A stretch of 64,000 nucleotides of DNA from a virus: positions 1 to 64,000 of the IMG/VR virus record IMGVR_UViG_3300035670_000055; one strand, given 5' to 3'. The notes beneath the pieces were generated by a model. That model saw only the letters and a list, made by a program, of their open reading frames with translations. It ran no database searches and was not told where the DNA came from. A program made the position numbers and the translations under genes. The number at the start of each line of letters is the position of its first letter. Position 1 is the first letter of the stretch. Positions 6,617 to 40,266 of this stretch are shown one piece after another.

Positions 6617-9600
6617 ATGGCAGAACAAGATTCACAAAATAATATTACTCTCAATTATAATTTTGCTAATGGTGGATTAAATTTAGATCAAACTCCTAAT
6701 CAAATTCAGAAAGGGGTATTGACTTATGCTCTTAATGCAACTGTAGAGAGTTTTGATTATAATTCAATAAATTATCAAAATGAACAAGGAAATGATTTTT
6801 GTTTAAATTTTCCAGAAGGATATGTTTTAATTGGTAAATATTTTATTTCAGAACAAAACAAGCATGTATTTATGTTGGTAAATCCAGATAGCCAAAATTC
6901 TGAAATAGGCTATATGGAAAGCAACAACTGTAAATACAACACTATAGTAAATGCAAAGTGTTTAAACTTTGATATAAACTATCCTATACATAAAATTGTA
7001 CATAAAATTAGCAAGGAAGGGACAGAAATATATTGGACAGATAGTAAGAATTCTAGAAGATATTTAAATATTGATGCTTTTCCTAAAAAAATAAAAGAAG
7101 GTTCTTCTCTATGTAACCCAGAGTATACAGAAGAGTTAGATTGTAATAAGATAAAAGTACAACCAGATTTTAAAATTCCCACCTTAGAAATAAAAGAAAT
7201 AATAGGTGGAGGAAATATTATATCAGGAACATATCAGTTTGCTATACAATATTGCGATAGTATAGGAAGTCCATATACATCATATTATTCTATTACTAAT
7301 CCTACACCTATAGCTGATCCTACAATCACTACACAAAATTTTAACTATTCTGTAGGTAAATCAATTGTTGTAGAAGTAGATAATTTAGATACTTCTGGAC
7401 AAGCACAATATTTTAATTTAGCTGTAATAAAAACAATTAATGCTATCTCTTCTGTAGAATTAGTAGGAACATACTATATAGATAATATAAATAAAAAAAT
7501 TACATACACAGGACAACAAGTAGATAATATAAGATTAACTATAAATGATATTTTTGAGAAGTTTCCTCTTTATGATGTTGCTGATGATGTGACTGCTGCT
7601 CAAGATGTTTTAATTTGGAAAGGACTTACTTCTATAGACAGAATGAATTATCAATCTATAGCTAATAAAATTAAATTACAATGGGAGTCTTGGAGGATTC
7701 CTGCTACAGAAAATTATTCTGATGAATATAATGCTACAAATTTAAGAGGGTATTTACGAGATGAAGTATATCCTTTTGAAATAACTTTTTTATTAAAAAA
7801 TGGAAAACAAACCGATTCTTTTCACATACCAGGAAGAAAACTAACTCCTTCTGAAGAACTTCTTCCTAGTATAAATATAGACAATGAGGATAGCATAATC
7901 AATACATCCTCTAGCCCTTATTGGGAAACATACAATACAGCAACCATCATTAGTACCCATCCTAACTATCAACCAACAGAAGATTATAAAGGTCCCTATC
8001 AGTATGGAGAATTTGCATATTGGGAATCTTCAGAAACTTATCCTTGTAATTCTGAAGTTTGGGGAGATTTAGCAGGGAAACCCATAAGACATCATAAATT
8101 TCCAGATGTAAATATTAGTCCTATATTTGAATCTAAAACATTCATAGTTTCATCATCTATTCAAATGGGAAATTGCGCTGTATTTCCAATTGGTGTAAAA
8201 ATAGATAATTCTCAAATTGAAACATTAATAAATACTAGCAATCTTACTACTGAACAGAAAGCAGATATAGTTGGCTGGAAAATAGTAAGAGGAGATAGAG
8301 GAACAAACAAATCTATTGTAGCAAAAGGCATTTTAAGAAACGTAAACTCTTATGAAAGAGCAGGACAAACATATTTATATCCAAACTATCCATACAACGA
8401 TTTATCAGAAGATCCATTTTTAAACAGTAATAATAATGCATTTTCTGATATATGCGAAGAATTTAATATTAATGTAACACAATTAGATAATGAAGGAAAA
8501 GCAATCATCCGATATAATGATTGTAATACAAATAAAGAAACAACAACAACCTTAACATCTTTAGGTGATGTTAAATTTTGTTCTATTGGAAAACCAACAA
8601 TAGATTCTCCTGCAAAAGCAGAAATTGGAACAACTAGTTATGAGGTATGGAGAGTTTCTGTTGGAGACCAAGGATGTGCTGTTGGATGGGTAGATCCTAT
8701 AAATGGATATACAAGAGAGTGGCTAACAGGAGTGTGGCTTGGTTCTGGAGAAAGTAAAGTTATACACGTAGTAATTGGTTCTGGAGAACCTGATAGAGTT
8801 GATGGTAGAGGTAGATTATATAAAGAAAAATTAGAAACTGTTTATGGAAGTGGAAATTGTTCTATTAGTGCTTCTCAAGGAACTTCTAATATTGAACAAC
8901 TTTCTCATAGACAAGTATTTAATTCTCCAGAAACTTCTTTTGGACAACCATTTTTAGGAAATGTATTAAAACTTGAAAGTGTAATTTTTGGAGGAGGAAA
9001 GGCACATTTTGTAGAGGTAAAAAATAATGCAAAATATAAATTATTAACACAAGAAATTCAAATTGATGCTTTATTAAGTGCTAATGAATTAGGACATATT
9101 ACAAATCCTTTTGATGCTTCTGCATTCTTTGCTGCATATCAAGGTTATATAGAAATTTATTTACGTTCTATTAGTAGAAAGAATTTTGCATATTCTTATA
9201 ACTCAATTGCGGAATACAATTATTCAAAACCTATTCCTAATGGTGTAGGAGTAAAACAAAGATTACTTGATATAAAAAGATATATAATTCCTGGTGTACA
9301 ATCTATTGGGGATGATTATAACATCAATAATTACCAAAGGGAAACATCTGTATTTTTAAAAACAGATGTTACAAAAGATCCTTTACCATTACCAAATAAA
9401 ACAAACTCAATAATAAATGCTGTAACAGGAAAAAGTATTATTGAAGATAAATCTAGACATACAATTTCTGAGTTAGGCATTTGTTCTACTCCAGATATAG
9501 AAAAAGATATTACAACTCTTTCCTACTATGCATCAATTAAAAATATTTATTCAGGACAGTGGGGACAAATGTACTCATATGATACTATTGATACTGGCTA

Positions 9601-24600: not shown

Positions 24601-27479
24601 TAAAAACAAAAGATGTAGTTTCTAAAGACCAAGAAGAATTAGAAACTGTATCAGGAACTACAGAAACAATTAATGAAAATCAAGTTGATCATACAGAGGG
24701 TAAATTAAAAGAAGCATCTATATTATTTAAAAGTTCTATTACAGAATCAGAAGATTGGGATAATCCAGAACAATCTGCTCCACATATAAAAAGAGCTAGA
24801 ATATTCTTAAATAATGTAGCTAGATTTAAAAATAGAAAGAATTATAAAGTGATTCTTATTACTCCTAATAATGCTAAAACTGCTGGATTAGAAGGTATTG
24901 TACAATTGTCATATAAAAGAAGTATAGATACACCTTTGTCTGAAATAGAAGATGTTACAAATCCAGAGAATGGATTTATGGCACAGGTTTTTGTGTATAC
25001 GGATAAATCTGGTTCTTACTTTGTAAATGAGAAAGGAGAAAAGATTGGTAAAGTAGGTAAACAATTAGAAAATATAGAATCTAGTGGAATAGTATTTCAA
25101 ACTATGCCAGCAGCAACTTTATATAATAGTAAAGGAACTCCTAGATTTAGAAAAAATGAAGAGGAAAAAGCCAATAGAGAATTAGCTGCTTATAAAATAT
25201 TTAGAGAGAAAAAATTTGCAAATGATGCTATAGGACAAGCTTATCCTTTTAAAGTGTCTAGAGGAGTAAGAAGAAAAACAGAAATAAAAGAAGATAATCA
25301 TATAAGCTCTATTTTAGGAAAAGATGGAGATAAAATAATATCTTCTATTTCTTCTTTATTAGAAGTTGTTACAACAGGTAAAATTAGTTTTAATGGAGAA
25401 CTTATTAGTTTTCCAAAAGGAACAGTTGTATTTAAATATGGAGATACATTAGATTTTGCTAATAATAAACCATTAACAGAAAAACAAGCAAGCAGTGTAT
25501 ATGCTGTAATAGAAAAATTAGCAGACGATGTTTTAAATGGAAAGAGTATTCAGGGAGCATATTCTAATTTCTTACAAAATATTTTATACTGGAAATCGAA
25601 AGCAGAAACAACTTCTCCTAGCCAAATAAAAATAGATGTTAATACAATGTCTTTACATCTAGGAAAAGAATCATTTCCTATTTCTGAAATTTCTCAAAGA
25701 AAAGATGAAATTATAAATGCATTAAAACAAGCATTTATTACAGTGAATGACAAAACTTTAAAAGAAGGAGTTAATAAAACTTTTATCGAATATGCTTTAA
25801 ATACACAAGGAGAATTAAAACCTATCGTATGGAAGAACTATCAGGAATACTTATTGTCTGATAAATATCCAAATGGAGATAAGAGAGATGTTTCTGAAAC
25901 TCCATTAATTACTCATGCTCCAAAACCTACAGAACTATTTCCAAGTTCTTATGTACAGAGATATTCTACAATTGAAGAAGGAAAATTAGAATTTCCTTAT
26001 GAATTAATTAAAGAAGAACCTGTTCCAATAAAGCAAGAATCTTCTACAGAAACTAAAAAAGAACAACCTAAACAACAAAATAAATATAATCTAACACCTG
26101 GAATTGTAAACGGATATAAATTAAATGATGGAAGAGATATTCTATTCACAGGAGAAATGACTCATGAAGGTCCTAGTATATCTATACAACAAACTAGTGT
26201 ATTTAACGATATTGTTGCTAATAAGGTTACAATAAATGGTATTAGATTAAACATAGAAAAAATAGGAACTGATACATCAAAAATGTCTGATGCACAAGTT
26301 CTAGATTTTTATTTAAAATTACTTATTGTAAAAGATATAGAAAACCAAAATGAACAACAACAAACAACACAATCAGAACAGACACAAGAAACAGCACAAG
26401 GACAAACCACAGAAACCAATATACAATCCCAACAAGGAACAGTTGCAACAAGACAAGGTGTTTCTGCTGACATAGGACTTAAAAAAACTAGAGAACAAGC
26501 TATAAAAGAAGCAGAAGAAAAATGGGCTGAAAATGTTGACGATAGAGGATTTCCTATAGAATCGTTACAACCTATATTAGCAAAAATAAATAAAGAATAT
26601 GATGAATTAGAAGCTAATAATGTATCTAAAGAAACATCATCTTCAGAAAATCCTCCTGTTAATTTCTCTAAATTAAAAACCAAAGGGAAAGGAAAAGGTT
26701 TACAATTTAGAAAATTAGGTATTTCTGATTCTGAAAGAATGACAGAAGAAGATATAAAAGAATTTAAAAAGTGGCATGCTGAAAATGTTCCTAATATTCC
26801 TTTTGAAATATTGGAACAAATGATTGTTATAAACTCTACAGAATCTGCATGGGGTGTTTTTGAAGATGGTGTAGCAAAATTTGTAAGAGGTGGATTAAAA
26901 GGTACAGAATATCACGAAGTATTTGAAGCTATCTGGGCAAATTTACTAACAGAAACAGAAAAGAAAAATCTATTAGAAGAATTTAGAAATAAAAAAGGAA
27001 CATTTATAGATAGACAGTCTGGAGAAGAATATAATTACAATAGTCCTTCTGTAGATGATAATACGATTAAAGAAAGAATTGCTGATGATTTTGCTGATTA
27101 CAGACTTGGTAAAATTAAAAATAGTTCTATAAAAGGAATGATAAAAGAATTCTTTAACAGAATCATGAATTTCTTTAAATCATTTGTTACAAAAAAATCA
27201 TTAAAAGAAAAATTATTTGATGAAATAGATAAAGGTAGATTTAAAAATAAAAAGATTGTTTCTGAAGATAAATTTAAAAATGTTCCAGTAAAATCAGGAG
27301 TAAAAGAATTATTTAATGAAAATTCTGAATTAGCTTCTGTTGGTACACAACAACAATATTCAGCATATCTGGATACTGTATTTCCTGATAGTAAAGTTAC
27401 AGAAATAGATAATTCTTTGTATATTAGTGTTTTAGAAGATTTAAAATCTAACAAAATAATAGAAAAACAATGTTCATAA
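21696..27479 (+). CDS. Giant virion cargo protein with degenerate zincin motif, 1927 aa
   Basis: The N-terminal 250 residues contain Gly/Ala-rich hydrophobic stretches (near residues 120-140 and 205-245) that could insert into membranes. The middle is helical and Lys/Glu-rich. A Gln/Thr-rich linker lies around residues 1550-1590. After it comes a zincin-like segment, GTEYH1740EVFE1744, in which the second His of HExxH is Glu. The end carries ELASVGTQQQYSAYLDTVF, a block that also appears near the N-terminus of the RNA polymerase protein. The last 10 bases overlap the GIY-YIG gene. Such giant proteins are packaged in crAss-like virions with the polymerase. Confidence 0.75.
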   Translation: MPILDNELNGNISNRDYTQERVDLSSINGPMPGRLPNLIASYSPGYSGDPSQFQGIRLKDVNSFTVGNVPKGPNSTFGMVTRKELLDNSRYPLYERGVNLENVYGNAQSGWAQLGNGLVKMGLTAVGTFAQSFATLPDTISAIKNRKFSELSNPNGYESDIDNWLKNMEDRFPNYVTDYEKSRGLATMIPFTAGSANFWGDKVIKNLGFTVGAIGGALAQDAIVGLATEGIGEIPLIGAQIGKASLWLNKLFTGTNRLEEALSLATKVGASERRIMTLTSLARAAEAEKITTGLRYGLNLYGSSRTEAATEARDGYRQIKEELIKEYKLNNGGAEPTSNDLYKIEKLAESGMNARFGINMALLTVSNAIQFDNLLKSFNSAKKGIESITSAEVKGLGNIKLKEGSLDVFEKVVPNSTSGKVWEYIKPTVKNIFTEGIYEEGGQYAAEKGTFDYYTRKYKNSKDWNWTKEVLNSTVTGLQEQFGSKEGIENMVIGALTASITSPISSRIEDITKGKSKDQMLQSVISTVNQYGLTGILSNKFEDTANSVAIAKQMNDAVKSNNIFKYKNLKADLFFNFVNSRLSVGMHDVTIEQLKLLKDLPKEEFEKTFGMNFDESNKSTVAEYVDSLIIKADNIKAINDSIQFSFKNPFQRIINPTNEEEKNELINYSKFENWKTNLVNLSYLEEDTTSRTNSIEKQIQSIHSGLNNSLLSSTFNIKGLSEFSSIYEEKANQLEQSINSLPLKDRAAVRSEVKKLRTLVEKIGIIKSNKSIDAKTLKELLEFELSGQNFENDINLRFDQIEKLMDFAGDLNLLNSRNEAIKEGIEFLTSEKGVDKFINEDEENFNEDEEKTNDEVLTYVDNKGNNKTIDVGREYQLPNIKLAKVRKSGEKYKVTSPDGKVTFYDTKEEANLAKDELNIDFSELSKVKILAINKDGSLKVEDLAGNIQNISKQSLNGYEFLLSKQEELLKTKDVVSKDQEELETVSGTTETINENQVDHTEGKLKEASILFKSSITESEDWDNPEQSAPHIKRARIFLNNVARFKNRKNYKVILITPNNAKTAGLEGIVQLSYKRSIDTPLSEIEDVTNPENGFMAQVFVYTDKSGSYFVNEKGEKIGKVGKQLENIESSGIVFQTMPAATLYNSKGTPRFRKNEEEKANRELAAYKIFREKKFANDAIGQAYPFKVSRGVRRKTEIKEDNHISSILGKDGDKIISSISSLLEVVTTGKISFNGELISFPKGTVVFKYGDTLDFANNKPLTEKQASSVYAVIEKLADDVLNGKSIQGAYSNFLQNILYWKSKAETTSPSQIKIDVNTMSLHLGKESFPISEISQRKDEIINALKQAFITVNDKTLKEGVNKTFIEYALNTQGELKPIVWKNYQEYLLSDKYPNGDKRDVSETPLITHAPKPTELFPSSYVQRYSTIEEGKLEFPYELIKEEPVPIKQESSTETKKEQPKQQNKYNLTPGIVNGYKLNDGRDILFTGEMTHEGPSISIQQTSVFNDIVANKVTINGIRLNIEKIGTDTSKMSDAQVLDFYLKLLIVKDIENQNEQQQTTQSEQTQETAQGQTTETNIQSQQGTVATRQGVSADIGLKKTREQAIKEAEEKWAENVDDRGFPIESLQPILAKINKEYDELEANNVSKETSSSENPPVNFSKLKTKGKGKGLQFRKLGISDSERMTEEDIKEFKKWHAENVPNIPFEILEQMIVINSTESAWGVFEDGVAKFVRGGLKGTEYHEVFEAIWANLLTETEKKNLLEEFRNKKGTFIDRQSGEEYNYNSPSVDDNTIKERIADDFADYRLGKIKNSSIKGMIKEFFNRIMNFFKSFVTKKSLKEKLFDEIDKGRFKNKKIVSEDKFKNVPVKSGVKELFNENSELASVGTQQQYSAYLDTVFPDSKVTEIDNSLYISVLEDLKSNKIIEKQCS

Positions 27480-28135
27480 AAGATATGCAAAGAGGGCAAT
27501 ACACAAATGTTTGTGGAATATATAAGTTGTATTTTGACAATGATAATAGATTTTATATAGGTTCTACAAATGATTTACAAGAAAGATTACAAGCACACAC
27601 AAGAGCTATAAATAAGCAAAAACATTTTAATGTATATTTTCAAAGATTATGTTTAAAATTAGGAGTAGAAAATTTAAAGTATGAAATACTTGTTAAATGT
27701 CCACAAGAGTATCTTTTAAAGATGGAACAATGGTTTATAGATAAATTAAAACCTGAATTGAATTTAGCAGAAACTGTTGGGAGACCTCCTATAAATAGAA
27801 AAAGAGGATATAAAATGTCAGAGGAAGCTAAACAAAATATAAGTAAAGCAAGAACTGGTCAAAAAATAGATAGAAGTAATTATGTTCATTCAGAAGAAAC
27901 TTTAAATAAAATAAGTCAATCTTTAAAAGGTAGAGTTATTATTGAAGAATGGAAACAAAAAATGAAGGAAGCTAAAGCTAAAGGAGGTAAATATTCCAAA
28001 TTAACTGTTAAACAAGTTAAAGAAATTAAATCTTTAGTTGGAACTAAAACAGATAAAGAAATTTCACAACTGTTTAATTGTTCAAGAGCTACTGTAAATC
28101 AAATCAAAAATAATAAAATCTGGAAAGAAGTATGA
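27470..28135 (+). CDS. GIY-YIG homing endonuclease, 221 aa
   Basis: The catalytic core starts with G16-I-Y18 and Y29-I-G31, followed by an Arg at about 39 and a Glu (MEQWFID) near residue 87. The middle has NUMOD3-like phrases (SEEAKQNISKARTGQ, SEETLNKISQSLKG). Residues about 172-221 form an HTH-type DNA-binding tail ending NNKIWKEV, closely similar to the tail of the HNH endonuclease at 47391. The gene overlaps the upstream giant gene by 10 bases and the polymerase gene by 4 (ATGA). A second ATG at 27485 would avoid the upstream overlap. It is a free-standing mobile gene wedged between two essential virion genes without breaking the downstream one. Confidence 0.9.
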   Translation: MFIKDMQRGQYTNVCGIYKLYFDNDNRFYIGSTNDLQERLQAHTRAINKQKHFNVYFQRLCLKLGVENLKYEILVKCPQEYLLKMEQWFIDKLKPELNLAETVGRPPINRKRGYKMSEEAKQNISKARTGQKIDRSNYVHSEETLNKISQSLKGRVIIEEWKQKMKEAKAKGGKYSKLTVKQVKEIKSLVGTKTDKEISQLFNCSRATVNQIKNNKIWKEV

Positions 28136-31100
28136 GTTGTATAATAACATATAAAGGTCAAAAGTATTCAGAAGAACAATTTAAAGAATACTTTATTAAT
28201 AATAAACAAGAATTTATTACATCTATTGCTAATAACAAAGATGTAGTGGATTCTTTTAAAAGAAAAATGGAAGGGATTGACTTTGTGTTCAGTCAATCAC
28301 CAGAACTTGCTTCTATTGGTAGTAAAGCTCAATATTTACAGTATTTATCTACTATCTTTAAAACCAGTCAAGTGAAGGATATTGTTTATCATGGTAGTGA
28401 TACAAAGATTGATAGATTTGATAAAAAATTTATAGGAACTGGGGCAGGATTACATTTAGGTAGAGGTTTTTATTTTGATATAAGTAAAGACAGCGCTAAA
28501 TTCTACACTGAGACTGTTGCAAATAAAACACTCAAAAGTTATAATCCATCTATTATCAATTTAACAAATCCACAAGAAAGTAAAGCATTATTAAGAAATC
28601 CTGATTATGTAAATTACGATGGAGTTAAAGATATTACAGGGCAACTTGTAGTATTTGAACCAGAGCAAATTCACATTTTAGGTTCTCAAGCAGATATAGA
28701 AGGATTTAAAGAATTTGTTTCTAAAAATGGTTCCTCAACTACTCCTCAATATAGAGTTGTGGAGGGATTGTCTGAAGAACAAGTAAATGATTTATCTGAT
28801 GATATAATTGGTACTATTGCTGAACTTATTTATGGAAGAGAAGATTATACAAAACAATTATTATTTAATCCAGAAGAAATATCTGGAAAAGGAATATTTG
28901 CTGAAATAAAAAGAAGACATGAAGAAGCAGGTTTAATTGATGCTATTGGAGAAAATAGATGGAATCAAATTAAAGAAAGAGCAATTGATAAATTAAGAAC
29001 CTTAGGAGTTTCTTTTGAAGAAGATGTAGACATTAATGATGAGAATGCTAGCCAAAAAGAATATGAAAGGGAAGCATTTGTTGTAGATTGGAAAAAAACT
29101 TCTTCTGCAGCAATTAGATTTTCATTAGCTACAATCCCTCAAAGAGTTCAAATGAATCAAGCAAATTCATTAGAACTAGTCTTTCCAGATAATGAAAATG
29201 ATGGTTTTGTTTTATCTGAAAGTTTAGGTGATTATGGAGGATATAAATTAGTTGATTTTAGTAGAGTGTTTGCTACATTGATGGATAAACTTTCTAATAC
29301 AAATAGTCCTGAGGAATTTGTTAGAAAATTAGTAGAATTGGCTGAAACAGATACAACATATTTATCTGTATTTGCAAGACTTGGTGGAAATTTATCAAGT
29401 AAATCTATTGATTTTTCTAATATGACTAATAAATATGATGTGAAATATTTCACACAGTTTTATAATTTATTTTCTAAACAAAAACCAGAAACATTAATTC
29501 AATATATAAATGATGGAGAAATATATTCAAACAATGCTAATTTATTTTCTGCTGTTACAGAAATTACTAATGGTTGGATTAATAATATAAAAGCATTAAG
29601 TAAATCAGAAGATAGTTTAATTTCTTACGATAGAAATCAGAAAATTTATAAAATAGATTCTGAGAAAATAAAATCATTTCCTATTAGAAAAGCTAGTGAT
29701 AGAATTAATTTATTAAACGCTATAGGAATCAATTTTGATTTACAAACATATAATCTATTAAGCGATGAACCTGAAACCATAGGAAAAAGAAGAGTTTCTC
29801 AAAAAGAACAATTTGATACTGCTGTAGATAAAATTTCTGAATATCTTGGAAGTAATCCAGATATAATGACTTTAAAAGGGAATACGTTAGGTATATCTGG
29901 ACCATTAAGAACTTTATCTAGATTATATATTGTTGCTACAAATCCTAATCAAGATTCTACATTCTTTGGTGTAAATAATCAAAGAAAAGGTTCTTATGCA
30001 GAAAATAATGCTGCTTCTTTCTTTGAGAATGATTTTAATGAATCAGAAACAATAGATGAATTATTGGAGAAAAGACCAGAATTAAATGGATATTTTTCTA
30101 AAGGTTCACAAATTCTTAAAAAAGGAGGATTGTTTTTTGATGAAGATGGAAATAGAATAGCTAAATTAAAACTTCTTACAATAGAAGGGTTAAAAAATAT
30201 AGATGAAGGTAAGAATAAAGGAATTTCTAAATTAACATTATCAGAAAGAGCAACACAAGAAATTAACCAGAATTTAAATGGTAATTATTATGTGTTAGTA
30301 CCTGGAGATGGTTCTACAGAATGGATGATGAATTTAGGAAATATAATTTCTTTTGAAGAAGTAGAAGCTGGTGTTTATTCTAAAAAATTAGAAGAAATAT
30401 TCATCAATGGGTATTTAATGGATGAAGTTAATCTTGTTTTGTTTGGAAAAAATAATACTGTTACTGTTAAGAAAAAATCTAAAGAACTTAGATTTATGAA
30501 AGACATTCTCTCTGATAAGCAAGTTAAAGAAATTGAAGACTTATTATCAAAAGATGCAACAACATTAGAACAAATAGAAAAGTATATTAAAGATAATAAA
30601 AAAGAATTAGTAAATAGTGTTGAACAATTTGTTAAAAATGTAAACGAAGAAACATTTAATAATTTAATTAATTCTTCACAGATTGAACAAATAGAAGAAG
30701 ATGAATTTGTATTAAATAAATTTGATTCAGAATTTATTAAGGAAAAAGGATTATCTACAGCTAGTAAAGAACGAGTGGATAATTTTATTAATTTCTTAAA
30801 TTTAAATTACATAATCAATAATATTGAATATCATAAGTTTATATTTGGAGACCCTTATCAATATAAAATTAAAGGAGATGGTTCTTTAGATGAAACAAAG
30901 CGTATAAAAATGTATTTGTCTCCTAGAAGAAGATTGCTTGATTTACGAGAATTTAATGATATTTTTAATATTGATTATAATAAAGTGGGAGATATAGAAT
31001 TAGATAAAAAAGATCCTACTTATCATACATTTAAATCTTACACAAAAACTGCTACACTATCTGATGTAGAAGTTAATGGTAGCGTATCTAGAGGAGATTT

Positions 31101-34100
31101 TCCTGAAAAAATTAAAAAGCAATATGCTGAGATAGATGAAACCGATGCTATGTCTTGGATAGAGGATAATACATATAGAGAAGTTAATATTAAAAAAGGA
31201 CAATGGTCTGACGAAGCTGAAAAATGGCATCAATGGCAAATGGCTTTCACAAGACAAAACTATCCTAATTATAAATATACAAACGATGAATTAAGAAAAC
31301 ATGATGAAGAATTAGTAAATACCCCTGAGCCAGAACATCACATAGAACAAATTAAACCTATTGTAACTGGAAATAAATATGGTTCTAAAGAAATAAATCC
31401 TGTAGGAGATAAACTTTCACAAATGCCTATTTATTATAGTATGGTGAAAGGAACTAACTTGGAAAAATTATACATCAAGATGAAAAAAGAAGACCTTGGT
31501 TATGTAATTGTACAAACAGGAAGAAAATTTGGTTCTGAAGGAACAAATCCTATGTATGTAAATGGTAAGTTTAATGAAGAAGAATATACCAATACAATTG
31601 ATGTAGCATGGGATACTTATGGTGTAATTGTAGAAACTGCTACAGAAGGAGATAAAAAACAAACTAGAGGGTCTCAGATCCCAAAAGTAATTACAATGGA
31701 TATGTTTTCTAATGGTGAAGTTTCTGAGGGATATAATAAAGAAGAAATAATTGCTGCGAATAAAGAATTTAATTCTGCAGAAGAAGATTTAGCTAAATTT
31801 AGATATGAGGAATTGTTAGATAGATTAGGAATTATTGAAGAAGATGGAGAGTTTATTTCTACATCAAATAAAACTATTGCTGAAACATTACAAGAAGAAT
31901 TATTAAGAAGAGATTCTTCTGAAAATGTAAAAGATTCTTTAAAATTAAATGAAGATGAAGAATTTGAAATTCCTTTTGAAGCTTCTCCTTCATATGAGCA
32001 AATTAGAAGTATTCTTTATTCCATGGTGAATAAATCATTTATTTCTCCTAAGATGAATGGTGCTCCACACGTACAAGCTCCTTCTACAATGTTTGAACAA
32101 GAAAATAGAATATTAGCAATTAAAGAAAATGGTGTGTACAGATTAATTGTAACACAAAAACAATATAATTCTTTAAGTGCTGCAGATAAGAAAAATGCCA
32201 TTATTACTCCTGATACAGAAAAATATTTTAATGAATTGGGAGAAGAGCAAAAGAAAACTGCTGTTCTTACAGATAATACGCTGAAGTTCTACACTAAAGA
32301 ACAACCTTGGTGTGAAATCATGTTACCTAATTGGTTCAAAAATAAACTAAAGAAAGGAAAATTAAAAAATGCTTCTGATGAAGATATTATCAACTATCTA
32401 AATAATTCAAAAGAAGGACAAAGAATATTATCTGGAATGGCATTCCGTATTCCTACACAAGCACTTTCTTCTATTGAAAGATTTAAAGTGAAAGCTTTTC
32501 TTCCTCAGTATATGGGACATGCAGTGATTGTACCTACAGAGATTACAAAAAAATCTGGATCTGACTTTGATATTGATAAATTGAACATTTATTTAAAATC
32601 AATTTATGTAGATAATAGTGGTAATCCTAGAATTATTGAATACAAAGGTTCAGAAGAAGAAACAAAACAGTTTTATGCAGAAGTTTTTGAAAAAGGTTTT
32701 GATAAAAAGATTTCTAATAAATCAGAATTGTTAGAAGCAATTGATATTGTTTTATATAATTTAGATGATCCAAAAGATCTTCTTTCTAAACATGGAGATT
32801 ATATTATGTCTTTTAGAGATAAATTTTCTTCTCCTATGGATGTAAGAGATTATTTGGAAAATCAGTTAAAAAAAATAACTGAAGAAGAATATTACAATAA
32901 GAGAAAAGAAGATTATGTAAATAGAATGTATAAGAGTGCTTTAGAAAATAGATATTACGAAGCATTAGAAAGATTATTCGAGCTACAACCTATTGAAAAA
33001 ATTCTTTCTCCTGTAGATGATGGAGGATTAGAAGATGTTTCTAAAAACCTAGATAAATTAAGAAACGATAATGAATCTGCAATAAAAGGAAGATTATTAA
33101 ATAGAAACTATATGTCTAATCTAAGACATGCATTTATCGTAGGAAAAGCATGGGTTGGTATTGCTGCTGTAAATATTACAGGATTATCATTAAGACAAAA
33201 ATCTAAAGTGTATCTAGATCCTAATAGAATTTCTTTGTTAGGAAAAAGAGAACAAGATTTTGTTAAAAACTTAGATATTGCTCTTCCACATAATACAATG
33301 GTATTAGAGAATGGACAAAAGGTAGTTTCTTTATCTGGATTAAAAACAGCAGATGGAACACAGTATCTATCTGATAGGTTCTCTGGATATGCTACAGCGT
33401 TTGTAGATATTGCAGCAAATCCATTCATTTCTAAGATTATTAAGAGTGATATTGTTATTTCTACATTTATGTTATTAGAAGCTGTAGGTGCTGGTAATAA
33501 AGGGGTGTATTTCTTAAATCAACCAATTATAGAAGAGTATTTAAAATTATTAGATAAAGAAGGAACTAAATCTGTAGTAAATGAAAATAACATTAAAAAA
33601 GTAAAAGAATTATTTCCTGCTAATGAAAAAGATATAAAATATGTAAAAATATCTCCAGAAGGATTAGAACAAAATATTGCAGACTATTATAAAAATGGTA
33701 AATTAAGACCTACAAAAAATGCAGAACAGCAAAAAATATTAGATGAATTTATTAAATATAAAATATTAGCAGACCAATTGTTTGAGTTTACACAAGCGAC
33801 AAACTATGACACTACTAGATTAACAGGTGTAGATTCTTTATATAAAAAAGAATTACTTACTAAAAAAGTAAGAGAAAGAAATATTATTGCTAATATAGAT
33901 GGTGTATTAAATGAAACTTTTATTGGTAATCTTACTAACTTGCTATCAAAATCTACACAAGCAATGGGAACTATCTTTAAATTAGATGAACCAAAAATCA
34001 GAGCTTATGTATTAGATACAGTGAAAAGATATGCAACTAAACCATTTATGTCTAATGATGATTATGAAAGAATAACTAATTTAATTAGAAGTTCTTTCTT

Positions 34101-35253
34101 AGATTATATTATTCAATCTCATTCTACATTAAATAAAGAAATTTCTGATTTATTATTAAATGAATCTACAAATATTGCTACACAATTAGAACTAATGAAA
34201 TCTAAATATCCAGGTATATCAATTCTACAAGATTTTGAAGTGGTATCTGGAAATAGAGAAAATAGTGCTAAGACAGTTAAGTTAAAAGTTAATTTAAAAG
34301 GAGATGTATTTGCTGAGAATCATTATATTGCTAAAATGAATGAGTTAAGAGATTATAATACGGAACTTAATGAATTCTACAATAATTTAATTAGAGTGGC
34401 TATATTACAAGGAAATTCACAATCTGCTATTTCTTTTAAAAATATTATTCCTGTACAAGATTATGCTAAAATTATTACACCAATTATAAATAATATAATG
34501 CCTGGTGCAAGATTGGATAATTTTACAAAATCAATGTTTGAAAGAAATAGTTTTACAAATGAAAATGTATTTGTTCCAGCTAAAATATTTTATGCTAAAG
34601 AAAGTCAAGGTGGTGGTTTATGGCTTCCTGCATTTGATTTTAGCAAATATAAATTTAATTCTGATGAAAGACAATTACTAAAACTTTCTGAGAAATTTAA
34701 TTTTACACAAGTTAGTTCTGATTTTGTAAAAGTTCCTAGAGTGTTCAAAACTAAGGTGGGAGTAGTTGATGAATTTGGAGATACAGACACACAAGAAAGG
34801 TACATAGATATATTATCTGGAAAAGTAATGAGACCAGAAGACTGGAAACAAGCTAAAGAAAAAGGAGACCAATCTTTAAATGACGTGTTTTATTACAAGA
34901 AAGTATATACAAATGAAGTAGACCAATTTGGAGAAAGAATTCCATTAAAAATATGGAATGGAGATGGAAAGGTACTAGCATTTGAACAAGTGTATAAACT
35001 AATGAATGTATATGGAGATAGTTTTAGAGCTGCTGAATATCCTTCTTCTAACGTAAGTTCTATATTTGATAATGGTTCTATTAAAACAAGAGAATTAACA
35101 GATGAAGAAATTGTAGATGCTATAAAAAATCCTGGTAAGAAAAAGGAAATTGTTACTGATTCTTTGAAAGATGAAGAAAATTCATTATCTTTACCAACAG
35201 AAGAAGATCTTGGACTAAATACAGATTTATCACAAGATGATTTTAAATGCTAA
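28132..35253 (+). CDS. Virion RNA polymerase (phi14:2 gp66-like) with N-terminal ADP-ribosyltransferase-like domain, 2373 aa
   Basis: D1478-F-D1480-I-D1482 is the metal-binding catalytic motif of crAss-like RNA polymerases, which have two double-psi beta-barrels on one chain. A conserved-looking GKAWVGIAAVNITG follows at 1671. In phi14:2 this protein travels in the virion and transcribes early genes after injection. Residues about 60-185 instead look like an ADP-ribosyltransferase fold: VYH87G, GFY114FD and FEPE178QIH give an H-Y-E triad. This is preceded by the block PELASIGSKAQYLQYL shared with the upstream giant protein. The length is a little above the roughly 2200 aa of phi14:2 gp66. The polymerase call is firm; the transferase activity is inferred. 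Confidence 0.9.
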   Translation: MSCIITYKGQKYSEEQFKEYFINNKQEFITSIANNKDVVDSFKRKMEGIDFVFSQSPELASIGSKAQYLQYLSTIFKTSQVKDIVYHGSDTKIDRFDKKFIGTGAGLHLGRGFYFDISKDSAKFYTETVANKTLKSYNPSIINLTNPQESKALLRNPDYVNYDGVKDITGQLVVFEPEQIHILGSQADIEGFKEFVSKNGSSTTPQYRVVEGLSEEQVNDLSDDIIGTIAELIYGREDYTKQLLFNPEEISGKGIFAEIKRRHEEAGLIDAIGENRWNQIKERAIDKLRTLGVSFEEDVDINDENASQKEYEREAFVVDWKKTSSAAIRFSLATIPQRVQMNQANSLELVFPDNENDGFVLSESLGDYGGYKLVDFSRVFATLMDKLSNTNSPEEFVRKLVELAETDTTYLSVFARLGGNLSSKSIDFSNMTNKYDVKYFTQFYNLFSKQKPETLIQYINDGEIYSNNANLFSAVTEITNGWINNIKALSKSEDSLISYDRNQKIYKIDSEKIKSFPIRKASDRINLLNAIGINFDLQTYNLLSDEPETIGKRRVSQKEQFDTAVDKISEYLGSNPDIMTLKGNTLGISGPLRTLSRLYIVATNPNQDSTFFGVNNQRKGSYAENNAASFFENDFNESETIDELLEKRPELNGYFSKGSQILKKGGLFFDEDGNRIAKLKLLTIEGLKNIDEGKNKGISKLTLSERATQEINQNLNGNYYVLVPGDGSTEWMMNLGNIISFEEVEAGVYSKKLEEIFINGYLMDEVNLVLFGKNNTVTVKKKSKELRFMKDILSDKQVKEIEDLLSKDATTLEQIEKYIKDNKKELVNSVEQFVKNVNEETFNNLINSSQIEQIEEDEFVLNKFDSEFIKEKGLSTASKERVDNFINFLNLNYIINNIEYHKFIFGDPYQYKIKGDGSLDETKRIKMYLSPRRRLLDLREFNDIFNIDYNKVGDIELDKKDPTYHTFKSYTKTATLSDVEVNGSVSRGDFPEKIKKQYAEIDETDAMSWIEDNTYREVNIKKGQWSDEAEKWHQWQMAFTRQNYPNYKYTNDELRKHDEELVNTPEPEHHIEQIKPIVTGNKYGSKEINPVGDKLSQMPIYYSMVKGTNLEKLYIKMKKEDLGYVIVQTGRKFGSEGTNPMYVNGKFNEEEYTNTIDVAWDTYGVIVETATEGDKKQTRGSQIPKVITMDMFSNGEVSEGYNKEEIIAANKEFNSAEEDLAKFRYEELLDRLGIIEEDGEFISTSNKTIAETLQEELLRRDSSENVKDSLKLNEDEEFEIPFEASPSYEQIRSILYSMVNKSFISPKMNGAPHVQAPSTMFEQENRILAIKENGVYRLIVTQKQYNSLSAADKKNAIITPDTEKYFNELGEEQKKTAVLTDNTLKFYTKEQPWCEIMLPNWFKNKLKKGKLKNASDEDIINYLNNSKEGQRILSGMAFRIPTQALSSIERFKVKAFLPQYMGHAVIVPTEITKKSGSDFDIDKLNIYLKSIYVDNSGNPRIIEYKGSEEETKQFYAEVFEKGFDKKISNKSELLEAIDIVLYNLDDPKDLLSKHGDYIMSFRDKFSSPMDVRDYLENQLKKITEEEYYNKRKEDYVNRMYKSALENRYYEALERLFELQPIEKILSPVDDGGLEDVSKNLDKLRNDNESAIKGRLLNRNYMSNLRHAFIVGKAWVGIAAVNITGLSLRQKSKVYLDPNRISLLGKREQDFVKNLDIALPHNTMVLENGQKVVSLSGLKTADGTQYLSDRFSGYATAFVDIAANPFISKIIKSDIVISTFMLLEAVGAGNKGVYFLNQPIIEEYLKLLDKEGTKSVVNENNIKKVKELFPANEKDIKYVKISPEGLEQNIADYYKNGKLRPTKNAEQQKILDEFIKYKILADQLFEFTQATNYDTTRLTGVDSLYKKELLTKKVRERNIIANIDGVLNETFIGNLTNLLSKSTQAMGTIFKLDEPKIRAYVLDTVKRYATKPFMSNDDYERITNLIRSSFLDYIIQSHSTLNKEISDLLLNESTNIATQLELMKSKYPGISILQDFEVVSGNRENSAKTVKLKVNLKGDVFAENHYIAKMNELRDYNTELNEFYNNLIRVAILQGNSQSAISFKNIIPVQDYAKIITPIINNIMPGARLDNFTKSMFERNSFTNENVFVPAKIFYAKESQGGGLWLPAFDFSKYKFNSDERQLLKLSEKFNFTQVSSDFVKVPRVFKTKVGVVDEFGDTDTQERYIDILSGKVMRPEDWKQAKEKGDQSLNDVFYYKKVYTNEVDQFGERIPLKIWNGDGKVLAFEQVYKLMNVYGDSFRAAEYPSSNVSSIFDNGSIKTRELTDEEIVDAIKNPGKKKEIVTDSLKDEENSLSLPTEEDLGLNTDLSQDDFKC

Positions 35254-35268
35254 AATAAATATTAAACT

Positions 35269-38200
35269 ATGGATTTTTGTAAAATTGGAATAGATAACGC
35301 AGTAAATAGAGCTATTAAAAATAATCCAGATTATTCTTATGATGAAAAAAGTGGAATTATTGAAATAAGTGATAATCCTAACAAAGATTTAAATCAATAC
35401 ACATCAATTAGATTTGCAAAAGGAATAGCTGCACAAATTAATAAATTTATAAACGATGGAGAAAAGGCAATTGGAAGAATTGCCTATTCTTCTTTTTATA
35501 AAGGAAGAGGAGTTGTAAGAATTGTTCCTACTAATTCACAATTAGAATTAATTAATTCTAATGAAGAAAAAAAATATATAGAATTAGAAGATAAAATACA
35601 AGAAGAATTATTACAAGAAGAATTTAGAAAACTTGCAGAAGAATCTAATACATATCTGGATGAAGAAAAAGAAGTAGTTTATGAAGATCCTTTATTACAA
35701 TTATCAGATGAAAATTTAAAACCTGTCTCTCCAAAAATGTTAAAATTTGTAAAAGAATTTATTAAACAGATTGGTGTAGATTATCAAAAGGTTGATAAAA
35801 TTGTTGTAAATGGAAAAGTTATAGATGCTAATGGTATTGCTCGAATGATGAGTAAACTTATTCAAGTGGTTGAAGGAAAAGAATCTGTAGCTCTTCCAGA
35901 AGAAGCTATGCACTTTGCTGTAGAGATTATAGAACAAACTAATCCAAAATTATTTGAACAAATGTTGAAAGATATAAATGGAGAGGAAATTTATAAAGAT
36001 GTATTAGAACAATATGGTAAAAATCCATATTATCAAAAAGATGGTAAACCAGATATAAGAAAATTAAAAAAAGAAGCTATTGGTAAATTACTAGTAGATA
36101 AAGTTTCCAGCATAAAAGCACAAACTTGGTGGGATAAAATTGTAAAATTCTTAAAAGAACTATTTAATAAACCACAGATGGATGGTGTAGATAGTCTTAC
36201 ACAATTTGCAGAAATGATTGTATCTGGAGAAGATTTTGGCACTGTAAATGATATTAAATCTTTAGAAGATTATTTCCAATTAAATGAACAAGATAAAGTA
36301 TTTAATAAATTAAAAGATTTAGATAATCAAATAACAAAAGAAGATGATGGTGTAAATGATGATGGAGATCCAAGACAAAGTTATTTTATAGGTGATAAAA
36401 AAATTAAATATAGAGTTACAGATTTTGTAAGTGATTGGTATTTAAAAATATTTGGTAATGAACAAACAGAATATCAAAAAAGACTAGCAGAATTAAAAGC
36501 AGAAGAAGGAACAAAAGGACATTATCATTTTGAAAAAGCATTTGATACATTTGTAGATTCTGATACAGGATTACTGAGAGAAGATTTTTTAGAAGATGAT
36601 GATCAATATTTATCTACTTTATCACAGGTAGATAAAGATGTGTATGCTACATTAAAAGAAAATTTAAGAGATAGATTATTATCTTTTCCTGAAGGAAGTA
36701 AGTTCTTAAAAGAAACAAAAATATATGATGGTAAAGAAACTGCTGGTACAGTGGATTTATTAATTGTAGAACCTTCTGGTAAAGTTAGTATTATTGACTG
36801 GAAATTTATAGACATAAATACTGATAAATATGAAGATGTTCCTTGGTATAAAGTTAAAGCTTGGAATCTTCAAATGGAAAAATATAGAGGTATTCTTACT
36901 AAGAATTATGGAGTAAAAGAAGAAGATTTTAAGCAAACAAGAATGATACCTATTCTTGCTATGTACACAGATGCTGATTATCAGGGACAAAATCTTCCTA
37001 AATTAAGAGGAATTAAAATAGGTTCTGTAAATGTTGATAATATTAATGAAGATTATTTACTATATGTAGGATTTAAAGAAAGAACAGGGGATGAAAAAAT
37101 TGATAATTTATTAGATAAAATGAATAGTGTTTATTCTAAAATATCTAATGAAAAAGTATCTCCACAAGATAGACCTTTAAAAAATGAACAACTAAACTCT
37201 TTATATAAGGCTATTAGACACTTAGAAATAAAAAAAGATATTATCCCTTTAATTAATCAAGGAAAGGTGCTAAATAAACAAGTTAGTAATTTTATTAAAA
37301 AATACAATGATAATATAAAAGATAAATCTAAAGAAGAATTAGAAAAAGAAACAATTAATGAGTTTGCTGGAATGATTAGAGTGCACATGGAAGCTCTACA
37401 ACCATATTTAGGTATAAGGCAATTAAAGTATTTATTAAATGAAACTAATCCTGAATTTAATGAAATAAAATCAAAATTAAGAGATACGATAGAAGATGTA
37501 CAGGATTATCTGGATCAACTAGAATCTATAGATAAAGAATTTGGTAAAAAGTTTGTAGGAGCTAGTTACACAGCAGAAAAAGTTGTAAAAGGTATTACTA
37601 GATGGTTTGGTAATGCTGCTACAATTCAATTAGAGAATTTACAAAGATTATTTACATTAGCTAATGAAGCAACAGCAATTTCTAATTTCGAAGTGAGCGA
37701 TGAAGTAAAAAAATTAGAAGAACTTAAAGAAAAATATATTAATTGGGCTAGGTCAAAAGGATTATCTACAAAAGATTATTTTAAAATGATAATAAAGAAT
37801 GACAAAAATGAGCTGATTAATCAATACGATTCTAATTTTTATAAAGAATTAAAAACTGCAGTTGCTAAAAAAGATTTTAGATGGATATTAGATAATGTGG
37901 ACAAAGTCGAAGTTATTAAAAAAATAAAAGAACAAGAAGAAAGAGAAATAGACGCAGCTTTAAACTATCCTGTTGTTGGTTCTGAGGAGCATGTAAAAGC
38001 AGAAATCAATAGAAAAATAGCCAAGATTAAAGATAAATATGATGTTTCTACATCTACATCTAAAGGTTGGTTACAAGAGCAATTTATAAAAATACCAACG
38101 GAGAAATGGGAATCTCAGGAATGGAAAACATTACATGAAAAAGATTCTTCTGGAAATTATGTAAATCAACCAGCTATAGATTTTTATAATTATATTGTAG

Positions 38201-40266
38201 AAAAAAATAAGTTATATAAAGAAATAGGATATTTAACAGGTAAATCAGCTAGAACATTTCTTCCTTGGATAAGAAAAGGATTTTTAGAAGGAGTAATATT
38301 AGATGGAAAACCACAAGGTTCTCTAGATCAGTTTTTAAGAAATATTTCTGTAGATGAAAATGAAACTGCTTATGGACAGATAGATCCTATTACAGGAAAA
38401 GTAATTGATACTATTCCTATTCATTTTGTAAATCAATTAGATGGAAAATATTCTACAGATTTATTTTCTACAATGTTTTTATATAATGAATTTGCAATTA
38501 AATATAAAAATCTTTCTCAAATAGAAGAACAAGCTAGATTATTGTTAAGGGCAGAACAAAATAAACAATCTATAATGACTTCTATGTTTGGAAACGTTAT
38601 AAAAAAGGGAGAAGGATTTGATTTTAATAATAATAATTTAGAAAATACAAAACTTTATGAATCATTCATGAAGTCTATTATTTATCAACAAAAATATATT
38701 AATGATTCTGAATTTGACATAATAATTGGTAAAATATCTGGATTTGGTAAAAAATTTAATGATAAATTAGGAATGAAAATATTTCCTGAAGCTATGGAAT
38801 CTAGATATTTAACAGTAAATAAAACATTAGATCAAATGAATAGAGCTTTCCAGTTACAGGCGTTAGGACTAAATGCTCTTTCTTCTATTTCTAACATGTT
38901 TGGTGGTACAGCTAATGCAATGATTAATGCTGGTAAATATTTTACTAAAGATGACTATTTAAAAACACAAGCTAAATTTCTTTGGGAAAAATTACAAGGA
39001 GATGAAAATGCTGGTAAAATATTAGCTGCTGTAGATTATTTTGCTCCATTTGTAGATAATTATAACAAAGAAGCTAAAAAGAAATTATCTCTTATGAAAT
39101 TAACTCCAGAAGGGATACAAGATTTTCTTATGGTTGGTCTTAGAAAAGGAGATGAAATGATTCAATATATGAATGCTTTTACGTTTATAAAGAATATGAT
39201 TGTTGTAGATGGACAGGTAAAAAATGTTAGAGAATATTTAAGAAGTACAGATGAGTACAAAGATTTTTATGCTGGTAATGCAGAGCAGAGAAAGGAAAGA
39301 AAAGAAAAATTTGAAGAAGATGTTAATAAGTTAATTGAAGAAAAAGGATTATTAAATGTCTCTAAACTATCAGAAAATGGCACATTAGAAATACCTGGTA
39401 TAGAAAGAAAATCTGATTCTATAATAGAACAAAGAAGAATCATACAACAGTTTACTTCTGATGCATTAGGTTCTTTAACAGAAGAAAATAGAAGATTGAT
39501 TAACATGAATGTATATGGTTCTTCTTTAATGGTATTTAAAAACTGGATTCCTAGATTGGTAGATGTTCGTGTAGGAGGATTAAAGTATAATGCTGCATAT
39601 CAAGCTTATGAATGGGGTAGATATAGAACATTTTATAGTATGCTTATTCCAGATATATTAAAGACTATTAAGAGCCTCACAGGAGCTGTAACTGGAAATA
39701 GTGATGTTTGGTTAGAACAAGTTAGATCAATGTTTGAAAAACAAAAAGAACAATATTTTAATAGTACAGGGAAAGAATTAAAAATGACAGAATCAGAATT
39801 TATTTCACTTGTAAATCAAAATATTAAAAACCAAGCATTAGATTTAATGATTTTAACAACATTATTAGCAATTGGTACAGTAGCAAAAGCTATGGCTCCA
39901 GATGATGATGAAGATGAAAATGTAAAAAATGTTTATAAATTTATGTTAAAAGCTACAGATAAAGTGACAGATGAGGTTTCTTATTTTTATAATCCTATGA
40001 CACCATTTAATTTAATTTCTACAAAAGGTGTGTTTCCTTCTGTAGGAATTTTAAATAATTATGCTAAATTCTTAAGAGATTTCGCTTTAGAAAATTATGG
40101 AATGATTATTAATGATGATGAAATTATAGATGATGCTAAACCAATTAAATATTTAATGAAATCTTTTCCTGTATCATCACAGGCTGCTTCTTATTTACCA
40201 ATGTTCTATCCAGAACTAGCAAAAGATCTTGGTATTAGAATGCAATCTACTTATGGTGTTAGATAA
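35269..40266 (+). CDS. Giant virion protein with PD-(D/E)XK nuclease domain, 1665 aa
   Basis: Around residues 400-580 lies a RecB-like nuclease domain: GHYHFEKAFD, then GTVD496LLIVEPSG and IID510WK512F, the D...(D/E)xK signature. The rest is long, helical and Lys/Glu-rich. A hydrophobic stretch (LDLMILTTLLAIGTVAKAM) near residue 1525 is followed by an acidic cluster (DDDEDE). The gene follows the polymerase by 15 bases and closes the cargo cluster. It might process the incoming genome or attack host DNA after ejection. crAss-like phages are known to carry such a nuclease near their giant virion genes. Confidence 0.8.
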   Translation: MDFCKIGIDNAVNRAIKNNPDYSYDEKSGIIEISDNPNKDLNQYTSIRFAKGIAAQINKFINDGEKAIGRIAYSSFYKGRGVVRIVPTNSQLELINSNEEKKYIELEDKIQEELLQEEFRKLAEESNTYLDEEKEVVYEDPLLQLSDENLKPVSPKMLKFVKEFIKQIGVDYQKVDKIVVNGKVIDANGIARMMSKLIQVVEGKESVALPEEAMHFAVEIIEQTNPKLFEQMLKDINGEEIYKDVLEQYGKNPYYQKDGKPDIRKLKKEAIGKLLVDKVSSIKAQTWWDKIVKFLKELFNKPQMDGVDSLTQFAEMIVSGEDFGTVNDIKSLEDYFQLNEQDKVFNKLKDLDNQITKEDDGVNDDGDPRQSYFIGDKKIKYRVTDFVSDWYLKIFGNEQTEYQKRLAELKAEEGTKGHYHFEKAFDTFVDSDTGLLREDFLEDDDQYLSTLSQVDKDVYATLKENLRDRLLSFPEGSKFLKETKIYDGKETAGTVDLLIVEPSGKVSIIDWKFIDINTDKYEDVPWYKVKAWNLQMEKYRGILTKNYGVKEEDFKQTRMIPILAMYTDADYQGQNLPKLRGIKIGSVNVDNINEDYLLYVGFKERTGDEKIDNLLDKMNSVYSKISNEKVSPQDRPLKNEQLNSLYKAIRHLEIKKDIIPLINQGKVLNKQVSNFIKKYNDNIKDKSKEELEKETINEFAGMIRVHMEALQPYLGIRQLKYLLNETNPEFNEIKSKLRDTIEDVQDYLDQLESIDKEFGKKFVGASYTAEKVVKGITRWFGNAATIQLENLQRLFTLANEATAISNFEVSDEVKKLEELKEKYINWARSKGLSTKDYFKMIIKNDKNELINQYDSNFYKELKTAVAKKDFRWILDNVDKVEVIKKIKEQEEREIDAALNYPVVGSEEHVKAEINRKIAKIKDKYDVSTSTSKGWLQEQFIKIPTEKWESQEWKTLHEKDSSGNYVNQPAIDFYNYIVEKNKLYKEIGYLTGKSARTFLPWIRKGFLEGVILDGKPQGSLDQFLRNISVDENETAYGQIDPITGKVIDTIPIHFVNQLDGKYSTDLFSTMFLYNEFAIKYKNLSQIEEQARLLLRAEQNKQSIMTSMFGNVIKKGEGFDFNNNNLENTKLYESFMKSIIYQQKYINDSEFDIIIGKISGFGKKFNDKLGMKIFPEAMESRYLTVNKTLDQMNRAFQLQALGLNALSSISNMFGGTANAMINAGKYFTKDDYLKTQAKFLWEKLQGDENAGKILAAVDYFAPFVDNYNKEAKKKLSLMKLTPEGIQDFLMVGLRKGDEMIQYMNAFTFIKNMIVVDGQVKNVREYLRSTDEYKDFYAGNAEQRKERKEKFEEDVNKLIEEKGLLNVSKLSENGTLEIPGIERKSDSIIEQRRIIQQFTSDALGSLTEENRRLINMNVYGSSLMVFKNWIPRLVDVRVGGLKYNAAYQAYEWGRYRTFYSMLIPDILKTIKSLTGAVTGNSDVWLEQVRSMFEKQKEQYFNSTGKELKMTESEFISLVNQNIKNQALDLMILTTLLAIGTVAKAMAPDDDEDENVKNVYKFMLKATDKVTDEVSYFYNPMTPFNLISTKGVFPSVGILNNYAKFLRDFALENYGMIINDDEIIDDAKPIKYLMKSFPVSSQAASYLPMFYPELAKDLGIRMQSTYGVR

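What the first reader, a model, noticed from the sequence alone, without database searches (positions are those of the whole stretch)
28315..28720. ADP-ribosyltransferase-like domain at the N-terminus of the virion RNA polymerase
The 2373-aa polymerase protein carries, at residues about 60-185, the pattern VYH87G, GFY114FD, FEPE178QIH, an H-Y-E arrangement of ADP-ribosyltransferases, as in phage polyvalent proteins and toxins. The catalytic DFDID of the polymerase is 1300 residues further on. A polymerase packaged in the virion would deliver a host-modifying enzyme in the same molecule, comparable in logic to T4 Alt, which is injected and ADP-ribosylates host RNA polymerase. It could silence host transcription while the phage polymerase starts.
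Basis: partly seen in the sequence, partly recalled or inferred. Interest (0 to 1): 0.75.

Follow-up and report, generated by a model that had tools for sequence, protein, structure and literature searches.

The report
ADP-ribosyltransferase module on phage virion polymerase
A crAss-like phage carries, on the RNA polymerase it probably injects into bacteria, a real ADP-ribosyltransferase-type enzyme module that related phages swap between their injected giant proteins; here the gene was also cut in two by a selfish DNA-cutting element.

Summary
ORF 28132-35253 (2373 aa) is a crAss-like virion RNA polymerase (profile matches phi14:2 gp66, PDB 6vr4, E 1.5e-38). Residues ~40-207 are an ADP-ribosyltransferase (ART): Pfam ART-PolyVal E 5.7e-8, confident AlphaFold model (pLDDT 87), every listed PDB fold match a PARP catalytic domain. 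One correction: the third catalytic position is probably residue 171 (Gln here, Glu in many relatives), not E178.

The domain does not belong to the polymerase as such. It is a roaming module: about 30 other phage contigs fuse it to this polymerase at different places, 39 carry it in the next ORF, and phi14:2 and crAss001 lack it. Its ends are conserved even at synonymous sites between phages whose polymerases are saturated, which implies recent exchange. In this window a GIY-YIG homing-endonuclease cassette (27408-~28374) has inserted into the module's leader and split an ancestral ~4000-aa protein, which is why the ART now starts the polymerase ORF.

Delivery is supported by near-total cysteine loss in the cargo ORFs (105 of 106 ART domains have none). 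Alt-like modification of a host target is plausible but untested. An ART fused to an N4-like virion polymerase was reported in 2017, so this is a new variant.

The parts
28132..35253 (+). ART-RNAP ORF, 2373 aa: HEG-borne N-terminus, ART module, crAss-like virion RNA polymerase; ends ..DDFKC
   Evidence: profile A3 vs 6vr4_A E 1.5e-38
28249..28752 (+). ART module, residues 40-207 (leader, core, trailer)
   Evidence: own HMM 169.7 bits; PF18760 E 5.7e-8; AF2/Foldseek PARP fold
28390..28392 (+). H87, first motif residue (64 H, 5 R, 1 K of 70 homologues)
28471..28473 (+). Y114, second motif residue (37 Y, 21 F, 7 H of 70)
28642..28644 (+). Q171, probable third (E/D/Q) motif residue
   Evidence: (E 29, Q 8, T 8 of 70), DSSP of the model, inference from PARP1
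28663..28665 (+).
28639..28722 (+). conserved trailer (..VVFEPEQIHILGSQADIEGFKEFV)
32563..32577 (+). DFDID catalytic motif of the RNA polymerase, residues 1478-1482
27408..28374 (+). inferred inserted cassette between ..PDSKV and KDIVYHG: stop tail, GIY-YIG HEG, new start plus recoded leader
   Evidence: 95.5% DNA identity of 27443-28394 with L124, 82.6% of 27441-28436 with L006; same layout in L018/L178, L019, L021
27470..28135 (+). GIY-YIG/NUMOD3 homing endonuclease, 221 aa
   Evidence: Pfam GIY-YIG E 1.2e-9, NUMOD3 E 9.2e-9
28132..28275 (+). cassette-borne new N-terminus of the polymerase ORF (MSCIITYKGQKYSEEQF.., 48 aa)
   Evidence: 77-89% identical in L124, L019, L006, L021
21696..27479 (+). 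upstream giant cargo ORF (1927 aa); in relatives fused to the RNAP in one ~4000-aa ORF
27288..27407 (+). orphan ART leader (SELASVGTQQQYSAYLDTVFPDSKV) at the C-terminus of the upstream ORF
   Evidence: leader HMM 75.2 bits, residues 1865-1904
35269..40266 (+). downstream giant cargo ORF (1665 aa); its homologues carry the ART at their N-terminus in many other phages
6617..12028 (+). crassvirus muzzle protein, identifies the phage as a crassvirus
   Evidence: PF25731 E 4.5e-27

Best explanation
Residues ~40-207 of the polymerase ORF are an H-Y-[E/D/Q] type ADP-ribosyltransferase module (ART-PolyVal/PARP-like). SHOWN by sequence and predicted fold: ART family, crAss-like RNAP, recurring fusion and relocation of the module, and splitting of the upstream-protein/ART/RNAP polypeptide by a GIY-YIG HEG cassette in the module's leader. 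INFERRED: the ~270-kDa protein is packaged, threaded through tail and periplasm as an almost cysteine-free chain and refolds in the cytoplasm. There the ART mono-ADP-ribosylates host targets in the first minutes while the RNAP transcribes early genes. The two activities are linked for joint delivery rather than for a joint reaction. Modules are exchanged between phages by recombination in the conserved leader and trailer.
For: ART: PF18760; model; PARP domains are the top PDB hits; viral ART-PolyVal proteins, including an N4-like 'VRNAP protein'. RNAP. Module: 33 ORFs with ART and the DxDxD core (31 distinct after stricter filtering) plus 39 in the next ORF; ART inside the RNAP between profile positions 366 and 417 in L210. 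Nearest ART relative (L003, 54%) comes from a phage whose RNAP is only 24% identical. Exchange: same-codon share 0.786 leader, 0.746 trailer, 0.557 RNAP core, against 0.52-0.55 expected. Other accessory domains on the same RNAPs: SF1 helicase, AlkB-like oxygenase, NADAR, SLOG. Delivery: 105 of 106 ART domains have no Cys, background 8.8 per 1000; MS-detected phi14:2 g065-g067 have 1-2 Cys each. HEG split.
Against: No biochemistry and no virion proteomics for this phage. The third motif residue is Gln, which could mean weak or altered activity, and the family varies there and at Y114. Most RNAP relatives closest to the window have no ART detectable by this HMM, so it is dispensable. The HMMER match to PF18760 covers only its first half (profile 8-66 of 140). 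A profile comparison with PARP1 alone aligned only the Y motif.
Confidence: 0.72

Rival explanations
1. The module is an ART fold that has lost transferase activity and serves as a binding or packaging domain of the giant protein.
For: Gln at the probable catalytic position and E/Q/T/I/V variation there in the family; H to R/K in 6 of 70.
Against: H is kept in 64 of 70 although the core is very divergent; a pure structural role would not explain the presence/absence pattern or the changing positions.
Confidence: 0.15
2. The ART acts against host defence or NAD-based signalling (NAD+-ADPr conflict) rather than on host RNA polymerase.
For: Same slots in relatives carry NADAR and SLOG domains of the NAD+/ADPr network; cores are fast-evolving and exchanged, as expected of conflict proteins.
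Against: No target data; Alt-like action on transcription fits co-delivery with a polymerase equally well.
Confidence: 0.35
3. The ART-RNAP ORF is joined to the upstream ORF by RNA splicing, so the split is only apparent.
For: Crass-like phages have many introns and inteins (PMC7886860), and the split lies within an otherwise continuous ~4000-aa protein.
Against: No Rfam intron hit at 26500-29500; the HEG overlaps both neighbours in stop/start fashion, the cassette brings its own start and a second copy of the leader, and the downstream leader is recoded.
Confidence: 0.07
4. The ART modifies the phage's own polymerase, DNA or nascent RNA (cis action) to tune early transcription.
For: Covalent link to the polymerase; in L210 the ART lies inside the RNAP sequence near the catalytic motif.
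Against: In 39 phages the module is in a separate ORF and many polymerases lack it.
Confidence: 0.08

Closest known systems
ART-PolyVal domains of polyvalent proteins; Roseovarius Plymouth podovirus 1 vRNAP (Iyer et al. 2017, PMC5512222)
   Same: H-Y ART of the polyvalent-protein type fused to a virion RNA polymerase; Alt-like role proposed there
   Different: There the polymerase is N4-like, T7-type single-subunit; here it is a two-barrel DxDxD polymerase of crassviruses. The published motif is H-Y-D; here H-Y-Q. The roaming bracketed module and HEG cassette were not found in the papers searched.
phi14:2 gp66 / crAss001 gp50 virion RNA polymerase
   Same: Homologous catalytic region, neighbouring giant cargo genes, cysteine-poor body
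   Different: No ART-PolyVal in either genome
Gut Suoliviridae crassviruses cr1_1, cr4_1, cr10_1, cr52_1, cr115_1
   Same: ART-PolyVal right after the RNAP gene; in the three with a gene annotated there it lies in a giant ORF not named as ART
   Different: Separate ORF, not fused to the polymerase
T4 Alt
   Same: Virion-carried ART as the logical model
   Different: R-S-E class by published classification; Alt is its own protein, not fused to a polymerase
PARP catalytic domains (tankyrase, PARP4, PARP10)
   Same: Best fold matches; H and Y motifs align
   Different: About 12-16% identity; Q in place of Glu988
Phage Aeh1 mobE in nrdA (genes in pieces, PMC2988022)
   Same: Homing endonuclease splits a gene that is whole in relatives
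   Different: GIY-YIG here (HNH in mobE); target is the leader of a roaming virion-cargo module

Membership tests
ART-PolyVal (PF18760) | Profile score above the curated cut-off | tested here: met
   34.1 vs 31.2 bits for residues 26-218; below cut-off when the whole 2373-aa protein is scanned (24.4)
ART-PolyVal (PF18760) | ART fold | tested here: met
ART-PolyVal (PF18760) | H-Y-[E/D/Q] motif | tested here: inconclusive
   H87 and Y114 met; third residue probably Q171, register not proven
ART-PolyVal (PF18760) | NAD-dependent transfer | not testable with these tools
   needs purified protein
Polyvalent proteins (Iyer 2017) | Several effector or enzymatic domains in one polypeptide encoded with virion genes | tested here: met
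   ART + RNAP in the window; helicase, AlkB-like, NADAR, SLOG on relatives; muzzle gene near by
Polyvalent proteins (Iyer 2017) | Carried in the particle and delivered | not testable with these tools
   indirect support only: Cys loss and MS-detected homologues in phi14:2
crAss-like virion RNA polymerase | DxDxD motif and homology to phi14:2 gp66 | tested here: met
T4 Alt family | R-S-E motif class | tested here: not met
   H at the first motif position and GFYF at the second; fold hits are PARPs
Free-standing GIY-YIG homing endonuclease splitting a gene | GIY-YIG domain inside a gene that is whole in relatives | tested here: met
Free-standing GIY-YIG homing endonuclease splitting a gene | Cuts the uninterrupted leader | not testable with these tools
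   needs cleavage assay
Group I/II intron | Covariance-model match at the insertion | tested here: not met
   no Rfam match at 26500-29500

The most novel reading that the evidence does not exclude
Crassvirus virion-polymerase and neighbouring cargo genes act as a polyvalent effector platform. Hypervariable ART cores, H- and R-types, are swapped between distantly related phages by recombination at conserved leader and trailer DNA, much as toxin tips are swapped in polymorphic toxins. Homing endonucleases parasitise the leader and cut the giant proteins into pieces. The cargo is almost free of cysteine for ejection, with a conserved cysteine at the extreme C-terminus of the polymerase.
Probability: 0.55. 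Interest if true: 0.78.

Novelty: new variant of a known kind. Interest (0 to 1): 0.66.

Why it matters
Crassviruses are among the most abundant gut viruses, and how they take over the host in the first minutes is poorly known. An injected ART next to or on the injected polymerase gives a concrete, testable takeover enzyme, present but not named as such in several described gut crassvirus genomes. The bracketed module shows how phages exchange injected effectors. The cysteine signature gives a simple sequence test for proteins that are ejected through the tail.

Tried and rejected
Chance motif: rejected. ART as a general part of crAss-like polymerases: rejected. Self-splicing intron at the split: no Rfam hit. 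E178 as catalytic Glu: judged unlikely from the model's secondary structure and PARP1 comparison, but the BLOSUM register test was inconclusive. Sequence search of PDB with the ART profile and with single relatives gave nothing, and PARP Pfam search in ten phage records gave nothing, so the PARP link rests on fold and motif. Bias check: FEPEQIHI was a search pattern, so trailer conservation was re-examined with a leader-only scan: the leader is nearly always followed by an ART core and trailer. R-type cores as a different ART clade: the model of L048 still finds PARPs, weakly, so not shown. ART tree: few supported branches; 23 location changes on 70 rows, at least 5 or 6 forced for the larger classes by strong branches. 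Bacterial genomes: only 8 contigs, in MAGs, which may be phage.

Full report
1. Observation. The ORF at 28132-35253 encodes 2373 aa. The polymerase motif DFDID lies at residues 1478-1482. Pfam ART-PolyVal (PF18760) matches the N-terminal piece with E 5.7e-8 (6.5e-7 for residues 1-243 and 5.5e-5 for the whole protein). A 61-member alignment gave an AlphaFold model with mean pLDDT 87.1 and pTM 0.82. In the PDB all 50 listed fold matches are PARP-family catalytic domains (tankyrase, PARP4, PARP10), probability 0.99-1.00. In the viral library the matches include many proteins annotated as PolyVal ART, among them crAss-like ones (cr130_1, cr116_1, ctelJ1) and an N4-like 'VRNAP protein'. TM-scores are modest (about 0.4), as expected for an ART this divergent with an extra N-terminal helical part.

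2. The polymerase. A profile of 26 relatives hits phi14:2 gp66 (6vr4) with E 1.5e-38. A crassvirus muzzle protein lies at 6617-12028. The record is 115,492 bases.

3. Catalytic residues. H is kept in 64 of 70 homologues and Y114 is Y or F in 58. In the model it sits in a three-residue helical turn after the strand 171-174. In PARP1 the catalytic Glu988 starts the corresponding strand (NEYIVYDIAQV), and relatives read NEYVVFEPEQI. The matching position is Q171, with E 29, Q 8, T 8, I 5, V 4, N 4 of 70. This is inference; a scoring test of the register was not decisive. The domain is best called H-Y-Q, with activity unproven.

4. Where the module occurs. The 42 nearest RNAP loci (one of them the window's own phage) mostly have one ORF of about 4000 aa in which homologues of the window's upstream ORF (21696-27479) and RNAP are joined. 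Most have no detectable ART there. L051 has it exactly at the junction, and L102, L114, L052 and L012 have it in the ORF downstream of the RNAP, at or near its N-terminus. Over all loci, 33 ORFs contain both ART and the DxDxD core. After removal of near-copies there are 106 distinct ARTs: 12 before the core, 19 after it, 39 in the next ORF, 36 not placed. In L210 the ART lies between two matched pieces of the RNAP profile, positions 366 and 417, close to the catalytic motif; in L138 it follows just after the motif region. Among 19 named crassvirus genomes, phi14:2, crAss001 and crAss002 have none, while five Suoliviridae have ART-PolyVal immediately downstream of the RNAP ORF.

5. Exchange. 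The closest ART relative (L003, 54% identity) comes from a phage whose polymerase is 24% identical to this one. The module is framed by a leader (NPELAxIGTxEQYSQYLDTIFPDSKVKDIVYHG) and a trailer (FEPEQIHILGxKQDIEGFKxFV), while the core varies strongly. Among 911 locus pairs, shared residues use the same codon in 78.6% (leader) and 74.6% (trailer) of cases, against 52-55% expected from codon usage; the RNAP core gives 55.7%, about the expectation of 53.9%. The ends were therefore exchanged recently between phages whose polymerases are saturated. Pairs are not independent, so no p-value is given.

6. The homing-endonuclease cassette. Between the two halves lies a GIY-YIG/NUMOD3 gene (27470-28135). 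The stretch 27443-28394 is 95.5% identical in DNA to L124, and 27441-28436 is 82.6% identical to L006, where the same cassette precedes other ARTs. It ends the upstream ORF after ..PDSKV with a short tail (..IEKQCS), overlaps the HEG start, and provides a new start (MSCIITYKGQKYSEEQF..) and a second, recoded leader before KDIVYHG. L018/L178, L019 and L021 show a similar layout with more distant endonucleases. Joining ..PDSKV to KDIVYHG restores the family consensus, as in uninterrupted L051. So the N-terminal position of the ART in this ORF is a product of gene splitting, comparable to phage Aeh1 nrdA (PMC2988022). No intron family matches.

7. Delivery. In the window the cargo ORFs between 12902 and 40266 (HEG excluded) have 0 to 1.3 Cys per 1000 aa, while muzzle, tail-fibre-like protein, HEG and RNR have 12-30. 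Of 106 ART domains 105 have none; neighbouring non-cargo ORFs average 8.8 per 1000. The MS-detected phi14:2 proteins g065-g067 show the same depletion. I read this as selection against disulphides in chains that cross the tail and periplasm partly unfolded, as proposed for crAss001 (PMC10172136). It supports packaging and injection of the ART but does not prove it.

8. Mechanism. Best reading: joint delivery of a polymerase and a mono-ART that alters host proteins at once. Relatives carry NADAR, SLOG, AlkB-like and helicase domains on the same polymerase, so the polymerase is a carrier of assorted early effectors. The NAD-related company makes a role against NAD-based defence as likely as an Alt-like effect on transcription.

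9. Novelty. Iyer et al. 2017 described an ART fused to an N4-like virion RNAP with the same Alt-like idea (PMC5512222). Four crAss-like papers searched for 'ribosyl' returned no occurrence, and library searches combining the terms returned no paper whose title or abstract points to this link. Most subscription papers, including the phi14:2 polymerase paper, were not held. I therefore rate it a new variant of a known kind.

Noticed in passing
window 27408-28374; L124:7236-8188; L006:8154-9152; L019; L021; L018: GIY-YIG homing-endonuclease cassettes sit in the leader of ART modules and split giant cargo genes, bringing a stop, a new start and a recoded leader.
   Followed up: yes
window 28132-35253 and 99 RNAP-core ORFs: 94 of 99 complete RNAP-core ORFs carry a cysteine in the last six residues although their bodies are nearly cysteine-free (51 of 99 have none); phi14:2 g066 ends QECK and g067 ends TIC. 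Unexplained.
   Followed up: partly
window 12902-40266: Giant cargo ORFs are almost free of cysteine (0-1.3 per 1000), a possible general sequence sign of ejected proteins.
   Followed up: partly
L088:16472-19891, L119:16124-18226, L107:16517-18250, L117:16379-17320, L093:16316-17353: C-terminal extensions of crAss-like RNAPs carry RecD/SF1 helicase, AlkB-like 2OG-Fe(II) oxygenase, NADAR and SLOG cpYpsA domains.
   Followed up: partly
L210:5530-6741, L138:1777-9117: ART inserted inside the RNAP sequence close to the DxDxD region.
   Followed up: partly
L048, L042, L102, L024, L142, L151: Some modules have Arg instead of the motif His in the same frame, perhaps a different ART type; the L048 model still finds PARPs weakly.
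   Followed up: partly
NC_055873, NC_055875, NC_055888, NC_055893, NC_055898: Five gut Suoliviridae genomes have an ART-PolyVal domain just downstream of the RNAP gene, not named as such in the annotations looked at.
   Followed up: yes
window 55976-59536 (-): Ribonucleotide reductase gene with a LAGLIDADG intein.
   Followed up: no
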